Virus record (IMG/VR): IMGVR_UViG_3300050821_009705
Location: 1-33,575 of that record
Direction: 5' to 3' (one strand)
DNA: 33,575 nt
DNA from: a virus
Part shown: piece after piece, positions 13,027-25,867 of the stretch
Layout of the letters: every line of letters starts with the position of its first letter
Numbering within the stretch: position 1 is the stretch's first letter
Notes under the pieces: model-generated
Seen by the model: the letters and a program-made list of their open reading frames with translations, nothing else
The model's database searches: none
What the model was told of the DNA's origin: nothing
Program-made: the position numbers and the translations under genes

Positions 13027-13656
13027 ATGTTCCCGAGCGACGAGATCCTATTCGATGAAGAGCCCCATCTGTATCGCTTTCGCGGCCGGGATTATATCTC
13101 GGTGACGCAGGCGATACGGTTGGCGGGGATGGGGGACGACTTCAGCATGGTCAGCGAGGAGCGTATGGACTATGCGCGGCGGCGGGGCCGGATGGTTCAC
13201 TTGGCCTGTCAGTATTTTGACGAAGGGGTTTTAGATCTTCAATCGGTCGATGCGGCCATCCGTGGCTATGTCGAAGCCTATCTCAAATTCCGCGAGGAGT
13301 GCAAAATCAAAGTCATCGAAACCGAACAAAAGATCGTTGCGGAACGAATGGGATTGGCCGGCACGCCGGACCTTATCGCCTGGATGAGCGGTAGGCGCGT
13401 GGTGATCGATCGGAAAACCTCGCAGCACATGAGCAAGTCGATGGGGCTTCAGACGGCGGGTTATAAAATCCTTCGCGAACAAGTTGAAAATACACAACTG
13501 ATCTATGGGCGCTACGGATTGCGCCTGGAAAAAACGGGGAATTATAAATTATTCGAACACGACAACCCAGAGGACGAGCCGGCGTTCCGCGATGCGTTGA
13601 GCCACGCGATCAGCGAAAAGAAAATGGAAAAGTGGCGGGTTCAATACGGGAAATGA
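13027..13656 (+). CDS. RecB-like PD-(D/E)XK nuclease
   Basis: 209 residues. The motif order fits lambda-exonuclease/RecB-type folds: GRMVHLACQYFD with His58, a Glu at 100, GTPDLIAWM with Asp115, then VVIDRKTSQ with Asp128 and Lys130 (D-x-K), and LQTAGYKIL with Gln142. These should form the metal-dependent active site of a DNA exonuclease. The partner is the upstream annealing-type protein. Three bases separate it from that stop, and the end overlaps the HNH gene (ATGA). Confidence 0.85.
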   Translation: MFPSDEILFDEEPHLYRFRGRDYISVTQAIRLAGMGDDFSMVSEERMDYARRRGRMVHLACQYFDEGVLDLQSVDAAIRGYVEAYLKFREECKIKVIETEQKIVAERMGLAGTPDLIAWMSGRRVVIDRKTSQHMSKSMGLQTAGYKILREQVENTQLIYGRYGLRLEKTGNYKLFEHDNPEDEPAFRDALSHAISEKKMEKWRVQYGK

Positions 13657-14144
13657 AAAAGGAAAAATTCATCGAATGGCTTCGCACAAACGGGGCCGAG
13701 ATTCTGCCGACGACCAATAGCTACGAGTTGGCGCGGTTCATGGCTCATGGGCGCGTGAACATTGTTTACGAAGGACGGCGCGGGATTCGGTGTGTCGGAT
13801 TCGCGCAGGAGTGCCTAGAGGCATGGCAGGAAGGTCGCGCCATGAATATGGGCTTTACGCAGAAACCCCGGAATTCCTTGCAGAGGAAACAACTGGCGTT
13901 GCTTCAGCGGGATGGCAGTCTTTGCTTTTATTGCGGGATGGTGATGTCTGGAACCCCTGGTACGCAAATGCAGATGACCGTGGAACACCTGGTAGGAAGG
14001 GCGAAAGGCGGCCCCGACCATGAGGATAATTTAGTCTTGTCGCACGAGGTGTGCAATAAAAAGGTGGCGAATTTGCCGTTGATCGAAAAACTTAAAGAGC
14101 GAGAAAGGAACTTATATGGAATCAATCGTCATCCAACAGCCTGA
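13653..14144 (+). CDS. HNH endonuclease
   Basis: 163 residues from ATG 13653 (ATGA overlap). The first ~60 residues are an N-terminal module of unknown type (EILPTTNSYELARFMAHGR). The C-terminal half is an HNH domain: LCFYCG (zinc Cys91, Cys94), MTVEHLVGRAKGG (Glu111, His112), HEDNLVLSHEVCN (Asn126, His131, Cys134). It should nick or cut DNA. It could be a free-standing homing-type nuclease or a packaging/recombination nuclease; its tight coupling with the RecB-like gene argues that it belongs to the module. Confidence 0.85.
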   Translation: MKKEKFIEWLRTNGAEILPTTNSYELARFMAHGRVNIVYEGRRGIRCVGFAQECLEAWQEGRAMNMGFTQKPRNSLQRKQLALLQRDGSLCFYCGMVMSGTPGTQMQMTVEHLVGRAKGGPDHEDNLVLSHEVCNKKVANLPLIEKLKERERNLYGINRHPTA

Positions 14145-14796
14145 CCCGGAAGAGCACGAGCGTCACGGAAGCGTCCTGGTCACGGAGGCCAACGGCGTGG
14201 TGATCGCGAACAATGATGACCGTGAATTAGCGGGCGCATTCGTGAACAATATCGATGAAACGCTAAAGCGGATCTTGAAGGAGTTTGACGGGACGCAGGA
14301 AAACCCCGGACCCGTCACCTTGGCGCATCGGGCCTGGAAAAGCGGCGTAGCGCTGCGGGAGCGCGCTATTGCGTCCTTCGTGATGGCGAAGGGCATTATC
14401 AACGGGAAGGTTCGGAAGTACGAATACGACGTTGAGAAAAAGCGCCTAGAGGAGGCAAACAGGCTCCAAAAGAAAGCGCAGGAAGAGGCCGAGGAGCGCC
14501 GTAAACAGCAGATCGCGGAGGCCAAGCGGTTAGGAGACCGGGAAGCGGTCGAAAACCTCAAGGCGGCCCCCATAAGCGTTGTAGCGCCCCCTCCCAAGAC
14601 GCCGGAGGTCAATAAGGTGGCCGGGATGCGTCGCACGGCGCCCATGTGGGATTTTGAGATCACGGATGAAGCGAAGATACCGCGACGGTTCTTAGTCGTG
14701 GATGAGTCCGCCATCCGGGCCCTGGTGAAACGGTTAGGAGCTCAGCATGGGATCCCCGGCATCACGGTGTTCGATTCCCGATCGCGGGGGGCGTGA
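14116..14796 (+). CDS. Coiled-coil phage protein of early gene cluster
   Basis: 226 residues, AAAGGA upstream, overlapping the HNH gene by 29 bp. An N-terminal acidic part precedes LAHRAWKSGVALRER, a long charged coiled coil (KKRLEEANRLQKKAQEEAEE ...), a Pro-rich linker (APPPKTPEVNKV) and a C-terminal domain (WDFEITDEAKIPRRFLVVDE, IPGITVFD). This order matches a widespread phage protein family seen beside recombination genes. Its function is not established; a structural scaffold for DNA processing enzymes is a guess. Confidence 0.7.
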   Translation: MESIVIQQPDPEEHERHGSVLVTEANGVVIANNDDRELAGAFVNNIDETLKRILKEFDGTQENPGPVTLAHRAWKSGVALRERAIASFVMAKGIINGKVRKYEYDVEKKRLEEANRLQKKAQEEAEERRKQQIAEAKRLGDREAVENLKAAPISVVAPPPKTPEVNKVAGMRRTAPMWDFEITDEAKIPRRFLVVDESAIRALVKRLGAQHGIPGITVFDSRSRGA

Positions 14797-15035
14797 TGGT
14801 CAGCATTCCACACGATACAGCGCATCCGTTGGTAGATCATCAGCTAGGAATCTGCGAATGGGGATTGAGCAAGCGCGAGGAGTTCGCCAAGGCTGCGATG
14901 CAGGGATTTTGTGGAGCACCTAATCAAATGGATTGGAACGCCACGCAAATTGCGATCTATGCCGTGATACAGGCCGATGCTCTCATCGAGGCACTGAACA
15001 AATCGAAATTGGATTTAGATAGGGCGCATGAATGA
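14796..15035 (+). CDS. Small hypothetical protein
   Basis: 79 residues from ATG 14796, sharing its A with the preceding TGA. The GTG at 14793 is an alternative. The sequence has LGICEWGLSKREEFAKAAMQ and a C-terminal helix (ALIEALNKSKLDLDRAHE). It has the look of short phage helical proteins (AMQ.f..), with no enzymatic motif. The stop overlaps the next start. Confidence 0.65.
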   Translation: MVSIPHDTAHPLVDHQLGICEWGLSKREEFAKAAMQGFCGAPNQMDWNATQIAIYAVIQADALIEALNKSKLDLDRAHE

Positions 15036-15379
15036 GCGGCCGCCATAATAATCGGCGGCGGCGGAACGGGTTAAAGAAGCGCGGCCAGAAACCCTCGATG
15101 GCGCAGCGTCTCGCGCAATCGGCGTGGGATAAGAAAGGGAGCCTCAATGCTGAAACACAAAATCGTCTCCATGAAGTTAAGTCGGCTGGCGCCGGCAGCG
15201 TACAATCCGCGCCGGATAAGCCGAAAAGCCCTAGAGGGGTTAAAGGCCTCCTTAAGCGAGTTTGGGACGGTGCAACCCATCGTATTCAACAAAAGAACAA
15301 AGACGGTGGTGGGCGGGCATCAGCGGATCCAAGCTCTGAAAGCCTTGGGCGAGACGGAAGCCCCGGTGGTGATCGTTGA
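15032..15379 (+). CDS. Basic hypothetical protein overprinting the ParB gene
   Basis: 115 residues from ATG 15032 (ATGA overlap). The first 38 residues are very basic (MSGRHNNRRRRNGLKKRGQ) and fall in sequence not used by any other gene. From 15147 onward the frame overlaps the ParB-fold gene in a different frame for 233 bp. The coupling at the start makes initiation credible. The overlapping part has low complexity (GGGRASADPSSESLGRDGSP) and may be only tolerated read-through. Confidence 0.45.
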   Translation: MSGRHNNRRRRNGLKKRGQKPSMAQRLAQSAWDKKGSLNAETQNRLHEVKSAGAGSVQSAPDKPKSPRGVKGLLKRVWDGATHRIQQKNKDGGGRASADPSSESLGRDGSPGGDR

Positions 15380-15767
15380 CCTGGATGAAAAGAAGGAGCG
15401 CGTCCTGAACGTCACGTTGAATAACCCTAAGATCGAAGGCGAATTTACGGAGGATCTGGACGCGATCCTGAAGGAAATCAGCAAAACGCTTCCCGCCGTC
15501 TATCGGAATTTACGAATGGATACGCTGGAGGCCAGCGAAAAGCGGCCGCGGCATCGGGAAGGCGAAGTCCAATTCACCGAAGAGGTCATGGAGGCTCATA
15601 ATTATATCGTGCTGTATTTCGAAAACGAAATTGATTGGCTTCATCTTCAAACGGTTTACCCTTTGCCACAGGTAAAGGCGATGGATTCAAAGCCTGGCTA
15701 TTCCAAGATCGGGATCGGGCGCGTGGTGCGCGGCGCGGAGTTCTTACGGAAGGTGACGGGAAAATGA
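15147..15767 (+). CDS. ParB-fold (ParB/sulfiredoxin-like) protein
   Basis: 206 residues, with AAAGGGAG before the ATG. Residues ~9-80 are a ParB N-terminal domain: AAYNPRRIS, FGTVQPIVFNKRT, VVGGHQRIQALKALG (GGHQR 56-60), then VLNVTLNNPKIEGEF as in ParB domains linked to DNA-modifying enzymes. The C-terminal ~75 residues (NYIVLYFENEIDWLHLQ ... GIGRVVRG) form a separate conserved-looking segment. No methylase domain is attached. A role in DNA modification or as a nucleotide-using switch is suggested by the two genes downstream. Classical plasmid partition is less likely, as no ParA is seen. Confidence 0.8.
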   Translation: MLKHKIVSMKLSRLAPAAYNPRRISRKALEGLKASLSEFGTVQPIVFNKRTKTVVGGHQRIQALKALGETEAPVVIVDLDEKKERVLNVTLNNPKIEGEFTEDLDAILKEISKTLPAVYRNLRMDTLEASEKRPRHREGEVQFTEEVMEAHNYIVLYFENEIDWLHLQTVYPLPQVKAMDSKPGYSKIGIGRVVRGAEFLRKVTGK

Positions 15768-15958
15768 CTTTCACCGACGACGATTTGAAGCGGTTGAAAG
15801 AAAACATGGATAGGCTAGGTGATGGTTTTATGCCTGGGAATTATACGCTACGTCCTCTCCTCGCCCGGCTGGAAGCGGCGGAGAAGCGAGCCTCTTATCA
15901 CATCAAAGATTGTCACTGTCAATATTGCTTAAATTGGCGCGAGGCGGCGGAGAAGTGA
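15764..15958 (+). CDS. Small hypothetical protein with Cys/His knuckle
   Basis: 64 residues from ATG 15764 (ATGA overlap). Helical with LARLEAAEKRA, then HIKDCHCQYCLNWREA, in which His and three Cys may bind zinc. It sits between the ParB-fold gene and the P-loop kinase, both by overlap, so it is probably co-translated with them. Confidence 0.65.
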   Translation: MTFTDDDLKRLKENMDRLGDGFMPGNYTLRPLLARLEAAEKRASYHIKDCHCQYCLNWREAAEK

Positions 15959-16461
15959 TCCATATCATCATCGGCGGGGCATTGTCGGGAAAGACGACGT
16001 ACGTGTACAAGAAATTTATCGAGGGGAATTATTCAATCGTTAAACACCTAGAAGATGTCCCCTGCACTCTGCCATATAACCATATTAAGAAAACAATTGT
16101 TATTGGAGATTACCTTAGGAAAATTCGATGTTGCGGGGTCGATCAGTTGGGACGTGATGCGAAGCGCGTCCACGAAAAAGTTCTCAATGTCATCGGCGTA
16201 TACGGATATAAAGAGGACACGTTAGTCGTTGCCGAGGGAACGTTGCTTCATCGGGATGCATTCATGCGAAACCTGGTGGGCGCTCCCTTAAAGTTGTTTT
16301 ACCTGGCCCAGCCTGGAGAAGTCATTCAGGAGCGCGTGAAGGCGCTGAAAATTAAGTGGACGGGGATCGTGACGATGACGCATCGCCAAGCGCGGGATTG
16401 CTTTATGAAATGGAATAAGGAATTTGAATATGAAATTATCGATCAACATCCAATCGCTTAA
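15955..16461 (+). CDS. P-loop kinase-like protein
   Basis: 168 residues from GTG 15955 (GTGA overlap). Walker A is GGALSGKT (7-14). There is a strand-acidic motif VIGDYLRKI, then GVDQLGRDA, and a later TLVVAEGTLLHRDAF, which looks like the acid-tipped strand of nucleotide or DNA-base kinases. LFYLAQPGEVIQERVKALKI gives the lid-like arginine segment. It should bind ATP and phosphorylate a small substrate or a modified base. Its placement before the glycosyltransferase matches the phage kinases proposed to act on 5-hydroxymethyl-pyrimidines; that substrate is inferred. Confidence 0.75.
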   Translation: MIHIIIGGALSGKTTYVYKKFIEGNYSIVKHLEDVPCTLPYNHIKKTIVIGDYLRKIRCCGVDQLGRDAKRVHEKVLNVIGVYGYKEDTLVVAEGTLLHRDAFMRNLVGAPLKLFYLAQPGEVIQERVKALKIKWTGIVTMTHRQARDCFMKWNKEFEYEIIDQHPIA

Positions 16462-17209
16462 GCGCGCCAACGATATTAAGACGCTTCGGATCTTTCCGGA
16501 GGCTTCAGTATGGGTGCACGAATTTGAGTTTGACGAATACGTCAAAGCGAACCCTGGAGCGCATATCCTTCGGTTGCCAGATGATCTTCGCGGGAATTTG
16601 CCAGGCGTAAAAAATTGGATTCTCAATGCGAGTTTTAACGGCGTGTTCGATGATGCCTGCCTTCTTCTGGACGATGACATTTATAAGGTCGGGTATTTTG
16701 AGGGGACGGAGCGGACCTATCTGGAAGGCGACGAGCTCCTGCGATTCGTGGAAAAATATACTCTGCTTTGTCAGGAGTGGGGATTCTTCCTATGGGGAAT
16801 CAACATCAACAACGACAAACAGTGCTACCGGGAATATACGCCCTTCGGAACGGTGCAGTACGTCAGCTCATCCTTTGCTTGTTTTCTGAAAGGGAACACG
16901 TGTCTTTACGACGAGCGCTTCCCTTTGAAAGAAGATTATGACATGACGCTTCAGCAATGCAACGTCAACCGCGGCCTTCTGCGATTGAACAAATGGCACT
17001 ATACGAAGTTGGGCGCGCAGAACGTCGGTGGGTGTGCCGACTACCGACAGGTGGCGAAGGAGCGGGAGCAGTTGGAATTGCTTCAAAAGAAGTGGGGCAG
17101 CCGGATCGTACAGATGGACGGTCTGGAACATTCGCGGAACCATATCACGAAAAAAGAGCGCAATTTCGACATCAATCCGGTCATTCACGTTCCAATCAAT
17201 GGGGTTTAA
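16430..17209 (+). CDS. GT-A-fold glycosyltransferase, TET/JBP-associated (TAGT/GREB1)-like
   Basis: 259 residues from ATG 16430 (AAGGAA upstream; the TTG at 16424 is less likely). The ordered motifs are GVKNWILNAS, a LLLDDDIYKVGYF metal-binding triad (Asp81-83), WGININND, REYTPFGTV, YDERFPLKEDYDMTLQ (167-171 region) and NVGGCADYR, then a KWGSRIVQ tail. This is the arrangement I recall for phage transferases linked to oxidised-base modification, related to the catalytic domain of GREB1 and JGT. It would transfer a sugar from a nucleotide-sugar, probably onto a hydroxymethylated base in DNA. The acceptor is inferred. It overlaps the kinase by 32 bp. Confidence 0.75.
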   Translation: MKLSINIQSLKRANDIKTLRIFPEASVWVHEFEFDEYVKANPGAHILRLPDDLRGNLPGVKNWILNASFNGVFDDACLLLDDDIYKVGYFEGTERTYLEGDELLRFVEKYTLLCQEWGFFLWGININNDKQCYREYTPFGTVQYVSSSFACFLKGNTCLYDERFPLKEDYDMTLQQCNVNRGLLRLNKWHYTKLGAQNVGGCADYRQVAKEREQLELLQKKWGSRIVQMDGLEHSRNHITKKERNFDINPVIHVPINGV

Positions 17210-19020: not shown

Positions 19021-20271
19021 ATGCAAAAGACGATTGAAATGATCAAGACTTCGGATCTTGTGGCCTCGCGATGGAATCGGGCGGCGAATGGGAACGGCGA
19101 ACTCAAGGAGTTGGCGGAAAGCATCAAAGCGCATGGGATCCTTCAGCCGCTGATCGTGCGCGAAGGGAATGAGATCGTGGCCGGCCACCGACGTTGGCGG
19201 GCCGCCGAAATGGCGGGCCTGGAAAAAGTCCCCTGCATTTTCTCGGCGTTAAGCGATCAGGACGCGAAGGTCGCGCAAATCACAGAAAACCTCATGCGGA
19301 AAAATCTGAACCCGATGGAGGAGGCGCGGGCGTTCCAGACGCTGCGGGAAGGAAACGCGCACACCCACCAAACCATCGCGGACATTGTGGGAAAGGACGT
19401 GAAATATGTCTACCGGTCGCTCGAATTGCTCAAACTGCCGAAAAAAGCCCAGGTCGCCCTCGAAAAAGGACTTATCAGCGCTGCTCACGGCCATCAGCTC
19501 GCACGCGTCGGAAGCGCTCAGATTGACACAATTGTTGCTTTCGCTATTACGCCGGGATTCAGAAGCGAAATCCCCAGCGTCGAAGACCTGAAGGCGGAAA
19601 TCAGCCGGCGTGTCGAAAAGAAACTGAGCGCGGCGCCTTTCGTGAAGGACAAGGAGTTCGCGGGGAAGATCGCGTGTAAGGGCTGCCCCTCGAATACCGC
19701 GAACCAGGACATGCTCTTCGATGACGCGGAAGAGGGATTCTGCACCAACAATACGTGTTTCGCGGCGAAGCTGAAACAGTTCTATAAAGATCTTCAGGGA
19801 GCGGGCGAAAAGCGGTGGCCGCATCTGAGGTTCATCGGGACGGCCTCGAGCGCGTACGGAGAGGATCAAACGATCAAAGGGTATCGGGTTGTCGAAGCGA
19901 AAGACCCGAATATAAAAAAATTACTCGATGAAGTGGATTCCGACGGAAAAACGCCGAATATGGGATTCGGAATTCTAAAGCCTTCCGCGTGGGGAAAAGT
20001 CAAGGCGGCGAAATTGGTAGTGCTTAGAAAAATGAAGGAAGGGGAGAAAGCGTCGGCGGAGAACCAGCGGGATCCGGACGATGAGTATAAATGGCAATTC
20101 ATACGCGCTTATACGGATTCCCATTGCCAAAAGGAGAGGGCGGCAGCCGAGAGGGCGCAAGAGTTGGCCAATGCGGCGGAAGAAGAAGTCGAAGAGGAAG
20201 CCCTGAAGATTTGGGAAAAGAATAAAGCCGCGATCATTGCGGAGTACAAAAAGAAAGAGGGGAAAAAATAA
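19021..20271 (+). CDS. ParB/Spo0J-family protein
   Basis: 416 residues, AAAGGAG before ATG. The N-terminal ParB domain runs from IKTSDLVASRWN to VAGHRRWRAAEMAG (GHRRWRA 55-61), with the ENLMRKNLNPMEEARAF segment that precedes the ParB helix-turn-helix. The HTH lies near HTHQTIADIVGKDVKYVYRS. A cysteine cluster (Cys219, Cys222, Cys241, Cys246: CKGCPSN, CTNNTCF) follows; it is typical of phage/plasmid ParB-like proteins and probably zinc-binding. The tail is a long charged helix. No ParA is seen in the window. It could condense or segregate phage DNA, act as a transcription factor, or regulate late genes. Confidence 0.85.
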   Translation: MQKTIEMIKTSDLVASRWNRAANGNGELKELAESIKAHGILQPLIVREGNEIVAGHRRWRAAEMAGLEKVPCIFSALSDQDAKVAQITENLMRKNLNPMEEARAFQTLREGNAHTHQTIADIVGKDVKYVYRSLELLKLPKKAQVALEKGLISAAHGHQLARVGSAQIDTIVAFAITPGFRSEIPSVEDLKAEISRRVEKKLSAAPFVKDKEFAGKIACKGCPSNTANQDMLFDDAEEGFCTNNTCFAAKLKQFYKDLQGAGEKRWPHLRFIGTASSAYGEDQTIKGYRVVEAKDPNIKKLLDEVDSDGKTPNMGFGILKPSAWGKVKAAKLVVLRKMKEGEKASAENQRDPDDEYKWQFIRAYTDSHCQKERAAAERAQELANAAEEEVEEEALKIWEKNKAAIIAEYKKKEGKK

Positions 20272-20660
20272 TGAAGAAAACCAAAGAGGAAAAGCCCGCG
20301 TTCAAAATGAATCTGGAAGTCATTTTGACCGAGGCGGAATTAAAGGGATGCGCGAAGGCGCTCGCGGAGGCGTTGAACGGTCAAGCGCGGATCGAAGCGG
20401 AACTGGCCGCCTTCAAAGCGCAGAAGAAATCCGAGCAGACGTTATTGGATAGCGCGATCCAACGGAATACGCTTCTACTGAACACGGGAAAGGAATTTCG
20501 CATGATCGAATGCGAATGGGATTATCTCTGGAAAGAGGGCATCAAAAAGGGCCATCGGAAAGATACCGGAGAGCTGGTGTCAAAGGACACGATTACGGAA
20601 GAGGAGCGGCAATTGGATTTTGCCCCTAAAGAGGGAAAGAAAAAGGAGATCATCCCATGA
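20271..20660 (+). CDS. Coiled-coil hypothetical protein
   Basis: 129 residues, TAATG start. A helical coiled coil (LAEALNGQARIEAELAAFKA) precedes a beta segment with ECEWDYLWKEGIKKGHRKDT and GELVSKDTITEEERQLDF. The CEW.y......k...R.DTGE.v....i..eERQ pattern occurs in short phage proteins of early operons next to nuclease genes. It may be an accessory subunit of the nuclease downstream; that is inference from context. Confidence 0.65.
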   Translation: MKKTKEEKPAFKMNLEVILTEAELKGCAKALAEALNGQARIEAELAAFKAQKKSEQTLLDSAIQRNTLLLNTGKEFRMIECEWDYLWKEGIKKGHRKDTGELVSKDTITEEERQLDFAPKEGKKKEIIP

Positions 20661-21325
20661 TCGGTTTATCGCAAAGTACGTTGGGGAATTTTTCGGAGTG
20701 TGCGCGCTGCTTCTGGCTCGCGAAGGTAAAAAAGGTCGAAAGACCTCGCGGGATCTTTCCTTCCTTGCCCAAGGGAATGGATCGCGTGATGAAAGAGGCG
20801 ACGGAGCGCGAATTAGCGGCGGGGATGCCCATTCATTATTTGGAAGGGATCCCGGATCAGCCGCATCCCGATCGAAAGATGGTGAACACGTATCGCAAAT
20901 GGCAAACGTTCCAATCCGTGATCCAGGTAGGCGGCCGCGAGATTAAACTGTGGGGCGAATTGGACGAGCTCCTGATCGATGGCGCGGGGAAGGTCTCCCC
21001 CTACGATTACAAGTCAAAAGGCGATGCGCCGGCGGCGGGGTATACGGAAAAATATTATCAGTCCCAGGCCGACGTGTACGATCTTCTGTTGTTCGGAAAG
21101 CACAAGACGACGGGGTTTGCCTATTTCACCTATACGTGGCCGGTGGAAGTGCAGAAGGGCGTGATCCGGTTTGATTATGAAACGGTGCAGGTGCAGACGA
21201 ATCGGGATCGCGCGGCGAAGTTGGCGTATGACGCGGCGGAATGTCTGGACGCGCCGATGCCGGAGCCTTCGATGACGTGCGAAATGTGCCATTACATTAT
21301 TAAGCGCATGGAGCATGGGGCGTGA
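20657..21325 (+). CDS. Cas4/RecB-like PD-(D/E)XK nuclease with Cys pairs
   Basis: 222 residues, ATGA start. LSQSTLGNFSECARCFWL opens the fold and holds Cys15/Cys18. LWGELDELLI gives Asp103, SPYDYKSKG gives Asp117 and Lys119, and YYQSQADVY carries the Gln (Q135) and Tyr. The end has TCEMCHYI (Cys208/Cys211). N- and C-terminal cysteines around a RecB core resemble the Fe-S cluster layout of Cas4/AddB-type nucleases, although the spacing is not standard. It is likely a DNA exonuclease; no cas genes or arrays are near. It is coupled to the coiled-coil gene upstream and the DUF7694 gene downstream. Confidence 0.8.
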   Translation: MIGLSQSTLGNFSECARCFWLAKVKKVERPRGIFPSLPKGMDRVMKEATERELAAGMPIHYLEGIPDQPHPDRKMVNTYRKWQTFQSVIQVGGREIKLWGELDELLIDGAGKVSPYDYKSKGDAPAAGYTEKYYQSQADVYDLLLFGKHKTTGFAYFTYTWPVEVQKGVIRFDYETVQVQTNRDRAAKLAYDAAECLDAPMPEPSMTCEMCHYIIKRMEHGA

Positions 21326-23886: not shown

Positions 23887-24441
23887 ATGAAACCCTCAAA
23901 GAGTGCCCACGCCAAAAAGCTCTCCCGCGGCCGCCGCTCCAAATTCAATAAAGCCATTCAAGAAGCCATTTGCAACGCGATCCGTGGAGGATTAGGACAG
24001 GACGAAGCGGCGATCATCAATAATATCGATCGGCATACCCTACAGCGATGGAAGAAAAAAAACGCACCTTTTTGCGCCGCGTTAGAAAGAGCCTGGACGC
24101 AATTCGAGCAGGATCAGCTGACGATTATCCGTGAAGCCTCGGTGAATCGCTACAGCAATGATGGCCTCATCACGCGGCGCGGGTCGTGGCAGGCGGCGGC
24201 GTGGTTGGCGGAGCGGCGTTTGGGAGAAAAGTATGCCTTGAAGTGGCAAGGGTCTTTAAGCGGCCCTGGTGGAAAGCCTCTGATTCCGGAAGCCCCTGGC
24301 GTGGACACGAGCCGGTTCACGAAGGAGCAATTGGATAAGTTGATCGATGCGACGGCGATCGTACAGACGTTGGCGATCGAAGCGACGGTGGTAAAGAGTG
24401 AGCCCCATGCAACGAATGGAAATGGTAACGGGGCTCCTTAA
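23887..24441 (+). CDS. terS: Terminase small subunit
   Basis: 184 residues; GGGG precedes the ATG. An N-terminal helix-turn-helix is suggested by KAIQEAICNAIRGGLGQDEA, AAIINNIDRHTLQRWKKKNA, followed by the small-terminase-like FCAALERAWTQFEQDQLTII and AAWLAERRLGEKYALKWQGS. The C-terminus has PLIPEAPGVDTSRFTKEQLD, which resembles the linker that meets the large subunit. It should recognise packaging sites on phage DNA. Overlaps the large subunit start; assignment supported strongly by this neighbour. Confidence 0.85.
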   Translation: MKPSKSAHAKKLSRGRRSKFNKAIQEAICNAIRGGLGQDEAAIINNIDRHTLQRWKKKNAPFCAALERAWTQFEQDQLTIIREASVNRYSNDGLITRRGSWQAAAWLAERRLGEKYALKWQGSLSGPGGKPLIPEAPGVDTSRFTKEQLDKLIDATAIVQTLAIEATVVKSEPHATNGNGNGAP

Positions 24442-25867
24442 TGCCACACCCGAAGAGATCCTGGCCCTTAACGCCCAATTCCGAATTGCGCGGGCGCGGA
24501 TTGCCGCGAAGGAAAAAGACGTACTCACGTGGGGTAAGTGTCTATTCCCTGAAAAATTCCCCCTCCCGTTTTGCTACCCGCTTCATCAGTACCTTGTTTA
24601 CATCCGGCATGATCCCCTCACGTCCACCAAGGCCCCTCGCTACCATTCAAAGACCACTATCAAGGGTTTCCTCATTCCGATATTTCAGGCCTGCGAGGAA
24701 CCGAAAGACTACTCGCATTATCTTCACGTCCAAGCGACAAACGCCAAGGCAAATGCAGTTAATCGCTCAATTCGGTACGAATTCGAGGAGAACCATGAAC
24801 TACGGCAATTGTATGGCGACCTCATAGGAACGCGATGGACCGACGAACAATTTGTCTTGGCAAACGGCGTGTGCTTTACGGCAGTTGGCGCGGGCCAAAG
24901 TATCCGTGGCATCAATTGGAGGAACAAGCGGCCGGACTATCTGATGCCGGACGATCTGTACGACGAGGAGGACATCTACAACCCGGAGAGCACCGAGAAA
25001 AAGAACCAGTGGTTTTGGTCTACGTTGTACCCTGCCCGTGCGCAAGGCCAGCGGACCAGCATCCAAATTACGGGAACCGCCTCAAACGAGTTAGACTTGA
25101 TGAATCGACTGGAGAAGTTATCACAGTGGAAGACCCGAACGTTCAAGGCGATCACGGACTGGGAGAACAAGACGGTGTTGTGGCCGGCGAAGAACAGCTT
25201 CGAGTCCCTGATGCAGGACATGGAGGGGATGACGAGCTCGATCTTCATGCGGGAAATGCAGAACGAGCCGAGGGACGATGCGAGCTCGATCATCAAGCAG
25301 GCGTGGATAAAACCCTATGATCCTGCCAATCTTTTTCCTGCTGGGACTTTCGAATATGGTGGTTGTGTGCTGGGTGTTGACCCTTCCATTGGCGAGAAGG
25401 AAGAAAACGACTTCACCGCGATTGCGCTCTTCTACGTGTACCGTTACACCGACGGACGCGGCTATCATTATTTCCTTGATCAGTTATGGAACGAGCATTG
25501 GACCCTTGACCAACGGATTAAAGAGTTGCAAGCTATACAGGACCGGCAACCGGACAATCGAAAGATTACCACCGCATTTATTGAGGGCATTGGAGGGTTC
25601 AAAGATTTTGTGGCAGAGGTCAAACGCCGTACCAACTTGCCCGTTCGTGAGATCGATAAAGTCAAAGACAAACTGGCGAATCTGGAAAGTCGTGCGTGGT
25701 TTTTTGAGACGGGACGGATCAAATACAACAAGAATATCGATCCAAAATTGGTGGAGAACTGGCGGTATCAGTTATGCACGAATCACCCGCGATACGACGA
25801 TATGAGAGACGCGACGCTGCTACCTTTGGAAATGCCGAAGATCGAAGCGTTGGCGTATATGGATTGA
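24407..25867 (+). CDS. terL: Terminase large subunit
   Basis: 486 residues from ATG 24407; GTG 24398 is an alternative, and both overlap terS. The ATPase domain has KAPRYHSKTTIKGF (Lys82 in a variant Walker A), QATNAKANAVNRSI, and a DYLMPDDLYDEED Walker B (Asp182/Asp183). The RNase-H-like nuclease domain shows VLGVDPSIGEKEENDFTA (Asp325), TTAFIEGIGGFKDF and HPRYDDMRDATLLPLE, supplying the acidic residues. It pumps DNA into the prohead and cuts it, at the portal vertex. Length is normal for the family. Confidence 0.9.
   Translation: MQRMEMVTGLLNATPEEILALNAQFRIARARIAAKEKDVLTWGKCLFPEKFPLPFCYPLHQYLVYIRHDPLTSTKAPRYHSKTTIKGFLIPIFQACEEPKDYSHYLHVQATNAKANAVNRSIRYEFEENHELRQLYGDLIGTRWTDEQFVLANGVCFTAVGAGQSIRGINWRNKRPDYLMPDDLYDEEDIYNPESTEKKNQWFWSTLYPARAQGQRTSIQITGTASNELDLMNRLEKLSQWKTRTFKAITDWENKTVLWPAKNSFESLMQDMEGMTSSIFMREMQNEPRDDASSIIKQAWIKPYDPANLFPAGTFEYGGCVLGVDPSIGEKEENDFTAIALFYVYRYTDGRGYHYFLDQLWNEHWTLDQRIKELQAIQDRQPDNRKITTAFIEGIGGFKDFVAEVKRRTNLPVREIDKVKDKLANLESRAWFFETGRIKYNKNIDPKLVENWRYQLCTNHPRYDDMRDATLLPLEMPKIEALAYMD

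What the first reader, a model, noticed from the sequence alone, without database searches (positions are those of the whole stretch)
15147..17209. Candidate DNA base-hypermodification cassette: ParB-fold, P-loop kinase, TAGT-like glycosyltransferase
Three coupled genes encode a ParB-fold protein (GGHQR motif), a GGALSGKT P-loop kinase and a DDD/KEDYD glycosyltransferase. Comparative work on phage base modification, and biochemistry of phage 5-hmdU DNA kinases, link such kinases and TET/JBP-associated glycosyltransferases to sugar or amine addition on oxidised bases. Here neither a TET/JBP dioxygenase nor a hydroxymethylase is visible, so either it is encoded elsewhere in the phage or the cassette acts on another substrate. 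The ParB gene's C-terminal part and the 64-residue Cys/His protein between the genes have no known function.
Basis: partly seen in the sequence, partly recalled or inferred. Interest (0 to 1): 0.78.

Follow-up and report, generated by a model that had tools for sequence, protein, structure and literature searches.

The report
Phage ParB-paired TAGT glycosyltransferase module
This phage carries a widespread two-gene unit, a ParB-like protein always paired with a sugar-transferring enzyme related to one that decorates phage T6 DNA, but none of its relatives searched has the recognised enzymes that normally make the base such enzymes act on, so it may put sugars on DNA by an unknown route.

Summary
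In detail: ParB-fold (15147-15767), 64-aa Cys/His (15764-15958), P-loop kinase (15955-16461) and TAGT glycosyltransferase (16430-17209) genes overlap head to tail. The transferase is a true PF20691 TAGT, the family of the T2/T6 enzyme that glucosylates hydroxymethylcytosine DNA. The real unit is ParB plus TAGT, not the trio. In 84 of 91 related loci a ParB lies directly upstream of the TAGT (5 of the other 7 truncated). In all 79 loci found independently with the ParB C-terminal domain alone, a TAGT follows. In 23 phage records these are the only two near-universal genes. The pair usually sits just before terminase, across three terminase families. Hydroxymethylase, C5-methylase and one dioxygenase family are absent from 34 records, while hydroxymethylase-type genes are found in 5 of 6 T6-like comparators. 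The kinase is unique to this window. It occupies a slot that elsewhere holds methyltransferases or a second TAGT, so it is probably a tailoring enzyme. Best reading: a ParB-targeted glycosylation module acting on phage DNA near packaging, whose acceptor base is unknown. Acceptor and activity are inferred, not shown. New variant of a known kind.

The parts
15147..15767 (+). ParB/sulfiredoxin-fold protein, 206 aa, partner of the TAGT
   Evidence: PF02195 1.3e-8; AF2 model aligns to ParB-CDP structure 6sdk, Z 15.2, rmsd 3.7 over 128 residues; nearest annotated relatives are ParB domains of phage DNA methyltransferases
15561..15764 (+). ParB C-terminal domain (about residues 139-206), TAGT-specific, proposed docking domain
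   Evidence: invariant F143, L156, D163, R192, G196 in 55-56 sequences; 79 of 79 loci found with this domain alone have an adjacent TAGT
15764..15958 (+). 64-aa Cys/His protein (H-x3-C-x-C-x2-C), function unknown
   Evidence: no Pfam or NCBIfam match; only phrog_1257 at E 0.039; no homologue among the relatives' genes
15955..16461 (+). P-loop kinase-like protein, 168 aa, GTG start; accessory gene unique to this window
   Evidence: Walker A GGALSGKT; no database relative
15973..15996 (+). Walker A motif GGALSGKT of the kinase
   Evidence: sequence; chance estimate
16430..17209 (+). TAGT-family GT-A glycosyltransferase, 259 aa
   Evidence: PF20691 28.1 bits over cut-off 27.5, all 52 relatives match; AF2 model pLDDT 89.6; viral TAGTs are the best fold matches, TM up to 0.82
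16670..16678 (+). DDD (residues 81-83), metal/NDP-sugar motif
   Evidence: invariant in 53 sequences, shared with T6
16925..16945 (+). LKEDYDM (residues 166-172)
   Evidence: invariant in 53 sequences; T6 has LCEDMYA at the same place
17027..17038 (+). GGCA (residues 200-203)
   Evidence: G200 and G201 invariant, C202 52/53, A203 51/53; T6 has GGCS

Best explanation
The locus is a two-component glycosylation module, ParB plus TAGT, with an accessory tailoring slot. Shown: the two genes are a near-obligate pair, are the only near-universal genes of their phages, and usually lie just upstream of terminase. Inferred: the ParB domain targets the partner to phage DNA, as its closest relatives appear to do when fused to DNA methyltransferases; its C-terminal domain docks the TAGT; the TAGT uses a host NDP-sugar and a DDD-bound metal to transfer a sugar onto phage DNA late in infection, around packaging, to protect it from restriction. 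Inferred: genes between ParB and TAGT (methyltransferases, a second TAGT, or here the P-loop kinase) modify or extend the added group, so the kinase would phosphorylate the sugar or its attachment. The acceptor on DNA is unknown, because these phages lack the recognised base-hydroxylating enzymes searched for.
For: TAGT membership and catalytic motifs. hhalign with T6 ggt gives probability 96.7 and E 4e-10. T2/T6 TAGT adds a second glucose to glucosyl-hmC DNA (PMC13216743; PMC13390438). Pairing: 84/91 and 79/79 loci. Only two near-universal genes among 23 records and 1452 genes. Terminase within 3.5 kb in 59/68 loci, median 482 bp, three groups matching different PHROGs. ParB relatives are mostly ParB-DNA-methyltransferase proteins. 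Slot contents in gapped loci: PF08241/PF13649-type methyltransferases, FkbM PF05050, second TAGT.
Against: No biochemistry and no nucleoside data. The known T6-type acceptor needs hydroxymethylcytosine, and no maker is found here. The nearest solved structures are protein and polysaccharide transferases, though no DNA-acting GT-A enzyme appeared among the solved matches. The ParB protein lacks the HTH_ParB domain, so its DNA binding is assumed. The window TAGT has Gly at position 59, where the other 52 aligned sequences have Arg. The kinase's tailoring role rests on position only.
Confidence: 0.5

Rival explanations
1. Conventional route: the acceptor is a 5-hydroxymethylpyrimidine made by a host enzyme or by an unrecognised phage enzyme that differs between phages; ParB-TAGT then glycosylates it.
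For: The characterised or best-annotated relatives act with hmC/hmU makers: T6 ggt lies next to the dCMP hydroxymethylase gene, MW202897 TAGT next to 'pyrimidine hmase', LuckyBarnes TAGTs next to thymidylate synthase.
Against: PF00303 0/34 against 5/6 comparators; PF00145 0/34; PF13640 0/34; no third gene shared among 23 records. Caveats: many records are fragments, and the PF12851 search had no positive control.
Confidence: 0.25
2. The TAGT glycosylates a protein, for example terminase, capsid or ParB itself, and ParB is the adaptor or substrate.
For: Closest solved folds are protein O-glycosyltransferases such as COLGALT1, GnT-I and POMGnT1; constant neighbourhood of packaging genes.
Against: TM-scores of only 0.4-0.5 to those; viral TAGTs including Klebsiella beta-glucosyl-HMC-alpha-GT are far closer; the neighbouring terminases fall in different families, so no common protein substrate is evident; ParB relatives belong to DNA modification enzymes.
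Confidence: 0.15
3. The kinase is a 5-hmdU-type DNA kinase and the trio is one hypermodification pathway.
For: A TAGT next to thymidylate synthase and a 5-hmdU DNA kinase helical-domain protein does exist in Brevibacterium phage LuckyBarnes.
Against: The window kinase has no match to HMUDK_hel PF18723 or any kinase family; no comparable kinase in the other ParB-TAGT loci checked by Walker A motif; no hydroxymethylase in the window.
Confidence: 0.08

Closest known systems
T2/T6 beta-glucosyl-HMC-alpha-glucosyltransferase (ggt, TAGT, PF20691)
   Same: Same Pfam family; DDD, ED and GGC..R motifs; profile match over 185 columns
   Different: T6 gene lies next to dCMP hydroxymethylase with no ParB of this kind in the 45 kb read; ParB-TAGTs form a separate clade (support 0.88) in phages lacking a recognised hydroxymethylase
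ParB-DNA methyltransferase fusions of phages (phrog_498)
   Same: ParB domain about 38-48% identical over roughly residues 5-131
   Different: Catalytic partner is a separate glycosyltransferase, and the ParB has its own C-terminal domain instead of a methyltransferase
LuckyBarnes-type cassette: thymidylate synthase, two TAGTs, 5-hmdU kinase helical domain
   Same: TAGT, tandem TAGT and a kinase-related gene together
   Different: Has a hydroxymethylase-type enzyme; no ParB of this kind in the 12.7 kb read; its kinase-related protein is not related to the window kinase by Pfam
CmoX/CmoY carboxymethylcytosine system (PMC12783734)
   Same: ParBc PF02195 proteins commonly accompany it, role unknown there too
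   Different: Methyltransferase plus AMP-forming ligase chemistry, no TAGT
Chromosome/plasmid partition ParB
   Same: ParB_N fold and nucleotide pocket region, Z up to 15
   Different: No HTH_ParB domain; paired with TAGT rather than ParA

Membership tests
TAGT PF20691 | Match above curated score | tested here: met
   28.1 against 27.5; 52/52 relatives match at E 0.01 or better
TAGT PF20691 | GT-A fold with DxD-type metal motif | tested here: met
   AF2 model and Foldseek to GT-A enzymes and viral TAGTs; DDD invariant
TAGT PF20691 | Association with TET/JBP dioxygenase | tested here: inconclusive
   PF12851 0/34, but the model rang nowhere, controls included
T6-type DNA glucosyl-hmC transferase system | Phage hydroxymethylase in the same genome | tested here: not met
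   PF00303 0/34 against 5/6 comparators; many records are fragments, Javan291 is complete
T6-type DNA glucosyl-hmC transferase system | Sugar transfer to DNA | not testable with these tools
   needs LC-MS or an in vitro assay
ParB | ParB_N domain | tested here: met
   35.2 against 26.3 bits; Z 15.2 to 6sdk
Partition ParB | HTH_ParB DNA-binding domain in the same protein | tested here: not met
   absent in 15147-15767, present in the other ParB at 19021-20271
5-hmdU DNA kinase | P-loop (Walker A) | tested here: met
   GGALSGKT
5-hmdU DNA kinase | HMUDK_hel PF18723 or kinase-family profile match | tested here: not met
   none at E up to 1; the LuckyBarnes protein matches at 4.6e-68

The most novel reading that the evidence does not exclude
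ParB-TAGT is a self-sufficient DNA glycosylation system: ParB presents an unmodified base (for example an exocyclic amine) to the TAGT, which glycosylates it directly with no prior hydroxymethylation, and slot genes then methylate, extend or phosphorylate the sugar.
Probability: 0.25. Interest if true: 0.88.

Novelty: new variant of a known kind. Interest (0 to 1): 0.62.

Why it matters
A 2026 study notes that 288 of 753 phage genomes encoding these transferases carry a solitary TAGT with no alpha- or beta-glucosyltransferase, and that these are potentially novel transferases (PMC13216743). The ParB-TAGT clade gives such TAGTs a near-obligate partner, a constant genomic place and a set of tailoring genes, so the question can be tested in culturable lysogens. 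If the sugar is on DNA, either a new acceptor or a new source of hydroxylated bases must exist, and ParB domains, common in phage DNA-modification loci with unknown role (PMC12783734), would gain a function as targeting subunits.

Tried and rejected
Kinase homologues were sought in Pfam, PHROGs, NCBIfam, PDB sequences, phages, plasmids and viral contigs: none. The full ParB alignment was too variable to seed a scan, so the C-terminal domain was used. A ParB-TAGT fusion was looked for and not seen: no TAGT frame extends far enough upstream to hold a ParB. The C-terminal ParB domain got no clear structural match; the ParB domain filled the list, so its fold is untested. A TET/JBP positive control could not be found. 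The MW202897 TAGT found no relatives in viral contigs. Two apparently broken TAGTs (L065, L067) were resolved as code-25 genes. Iyer et al. 2013, which as I recall described TAGTs and may already mention ParB neighbours, was not held, so priority for the pairing is unchecked; no held paper contains TAGT, ParB, glycosyltransferase and phage together.

Full report
WHAT IS THERE. Four + strand genes overlap in series: parB 15147-15767 (206 aa), a 64-aa Cys/His ORF 15764-15958, a P-loop protein 15955-16461 (168 aa, GTG start) and a glycosyltransferase 16430-17209 (259 aa). The window is an entire IMG/VR record, linear, perhaps a fragment. Pfam gives ParB_N (1.3e-8) and TAGT PF20691 (28.1 bits, cut-off 27.5); PHROGs gives phrog_842, beta-glucosyl-HMC-alpha-glucosyltransferase, at 3.5e-15.

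THE CONSERVED UNIT IS ParB PLUS TAGT. A viral-contig scan with the TAGT returned 80 loci, a genome scan 10 loci in contigs of Bacteroides, Victivallaceae, Treponema, Phascolarctobacterium, Roseibacillus and others, presumably prophages, and the phage collection one, Streptococcus prophage Javan291. A ParB lies directly upstream in 84 of 91; 5 of the rest are truncated. An independent scan seeded only with the 70-residue ParB C-terminal domain gave 79 new loci, and all 79 have a TAGT next to it. The two scans overlap in contigs, so these are not 170 independent cases; 112 are distinct by TAGT sequence. The TAGT is strongly conserved (55% mean column identity), with DDD 81-83, LKEDYDM 166-172 and GG 200-201 invariant.

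NO THIRD GENE. In 23 records (1452 genes) ParB and TAGT are each found in 22; the next family, a terminase, is in 14. PF00303 (thymidylate synthase/hydroxymethylase), PF00145 (C5-methylase) and PF13640 (2OG dioxygenase) are absent in 34 of 34 records. The same PF00303 search rings in 5 of 6 comparator TAGT phages, where the enzyme often lies next to the TAGT: T6, MW202897, LuckyBarnes, a Klebsiella phage. The TET/JBP search was also negative but had no working positive control, so it carries little weight.

POSITION. Terminase large subunit begins within 3.5 kb downstream in 59 of 68 loci with room, median 482 bp, in three groups that match different PHROG families (phrog_2/3717, phrog_38, phrog_15). 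In this window the terminase genes (23887-25867) are 6.7 kb downstream.

ParB. The model aligns to ParB-CDP (6sdk) with Z 15.2. Its closest annotated relatives in phages are largely ParB domains of adenine or other DNA methyltransferases, so the ParB family is tied to DNA modification. The partition HTH domain is absent. The C-terminal domain is modelled at only moderate confidence.

TAGT AGAINST T6. hhalign to T6 ggt: probability 96.7, E 4e-10. ParB-TAGTs form one clade (support 0.88) apart from the T6-type enzymes, with the catalytic motifs shared. T2/T6 TAGT adds a second glucose to glucosyl-hmC, and many phages have solitary TAGTs of unknown role (PMC13216743).

THE SLOT. In most loci ParB and TAGT are adjacent. 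In the gapped ones the insert is a class-I methyltransferase (L005, L073/L078, L133, L144, L169), an FkbM-type methyltransferase (L139, L145, L151) or a second TAGT (L132, L137, L163; L070 also has tandem TAGTs). One further gapped locus (L112) holds a 97-aa protein without a Pfam match (as L020). FkbM relatives methylate hydroxyls, sugars among them (own knowledge). The second TAGTs recall the di-glucosylation of T6 DNA. The window's P-loop protein and 64-aa ORF sit in this same slot, so the parsimonious reading is a tailoring enzyme; this is inference from position. The kinase has no detectable relative.

MECHANISM, WITH STATUS. Pairing, conservation, position and slot contents are shown by comparison. 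That ParB targets DNA, that the C-terminal domain docks the TAGT, that the sugar goes on DNA, and that the role is anti-restriction at packaging are inferred. The acceptor is open.

VERDICT. The more interesting result is a near-obligate ParB-TAGT module in phages without recognised base-hydroxylating enzymes.

Noticed in passing
L065:6001-6753 and L067:170-904: TAGT genes broken under table 11 but open under table 25 (TGA=Gly), with 5 and 3 TGA codons read as Gly, several at conserved Gly positions: ParB-TAGT phages of hosts with the Absconditabacteria/Gracilibacteria code.
   Followed up: partly
window 19021-20271: A second ParB-family protein with ParB_N and HTH_ParB domains, separate from the TAGT partner.
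   Followed up: no
L194:3562-7577 (Brevibacterium phage LuckyBarnes): Thymidylate synthase, two tandem TAGTs and a 5-hmdU DNA kinase helical-domain protein in a row: a likely hmU glycosylation/phosphorylation cassette in a cultured phage.
   Followed up: partly
L198:75-833 (Lactobacillus phage Ld17): A strong TAGT (114.5 bits) as the first gene before the terminase genes, with no ParB of this type detected: the terminase neighbourhood may hold beyond the ParB pair.
   Followed up: partly
window 16604-16612 (TAGT residues 59-61): The window TAGT has Gly at residue 59 where the 52 other aligned ParB-TAGTs have Arg; T6 also has Gly in that column. It also has Lys at 61, where 49 of 53 have Arg.
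   Followed up: partly
window 15032-15379: A 115-aa ORF overlaps parB by 233 bp in another frame; probably not both are full genes.
   Followed up: no
window 13027-14796 and 20657-21322: Two PD-(D/E)XK nuclease-family proteins, an HNH endonuclease and an exonuclease-like protein lie around the module.
   Followed up: no
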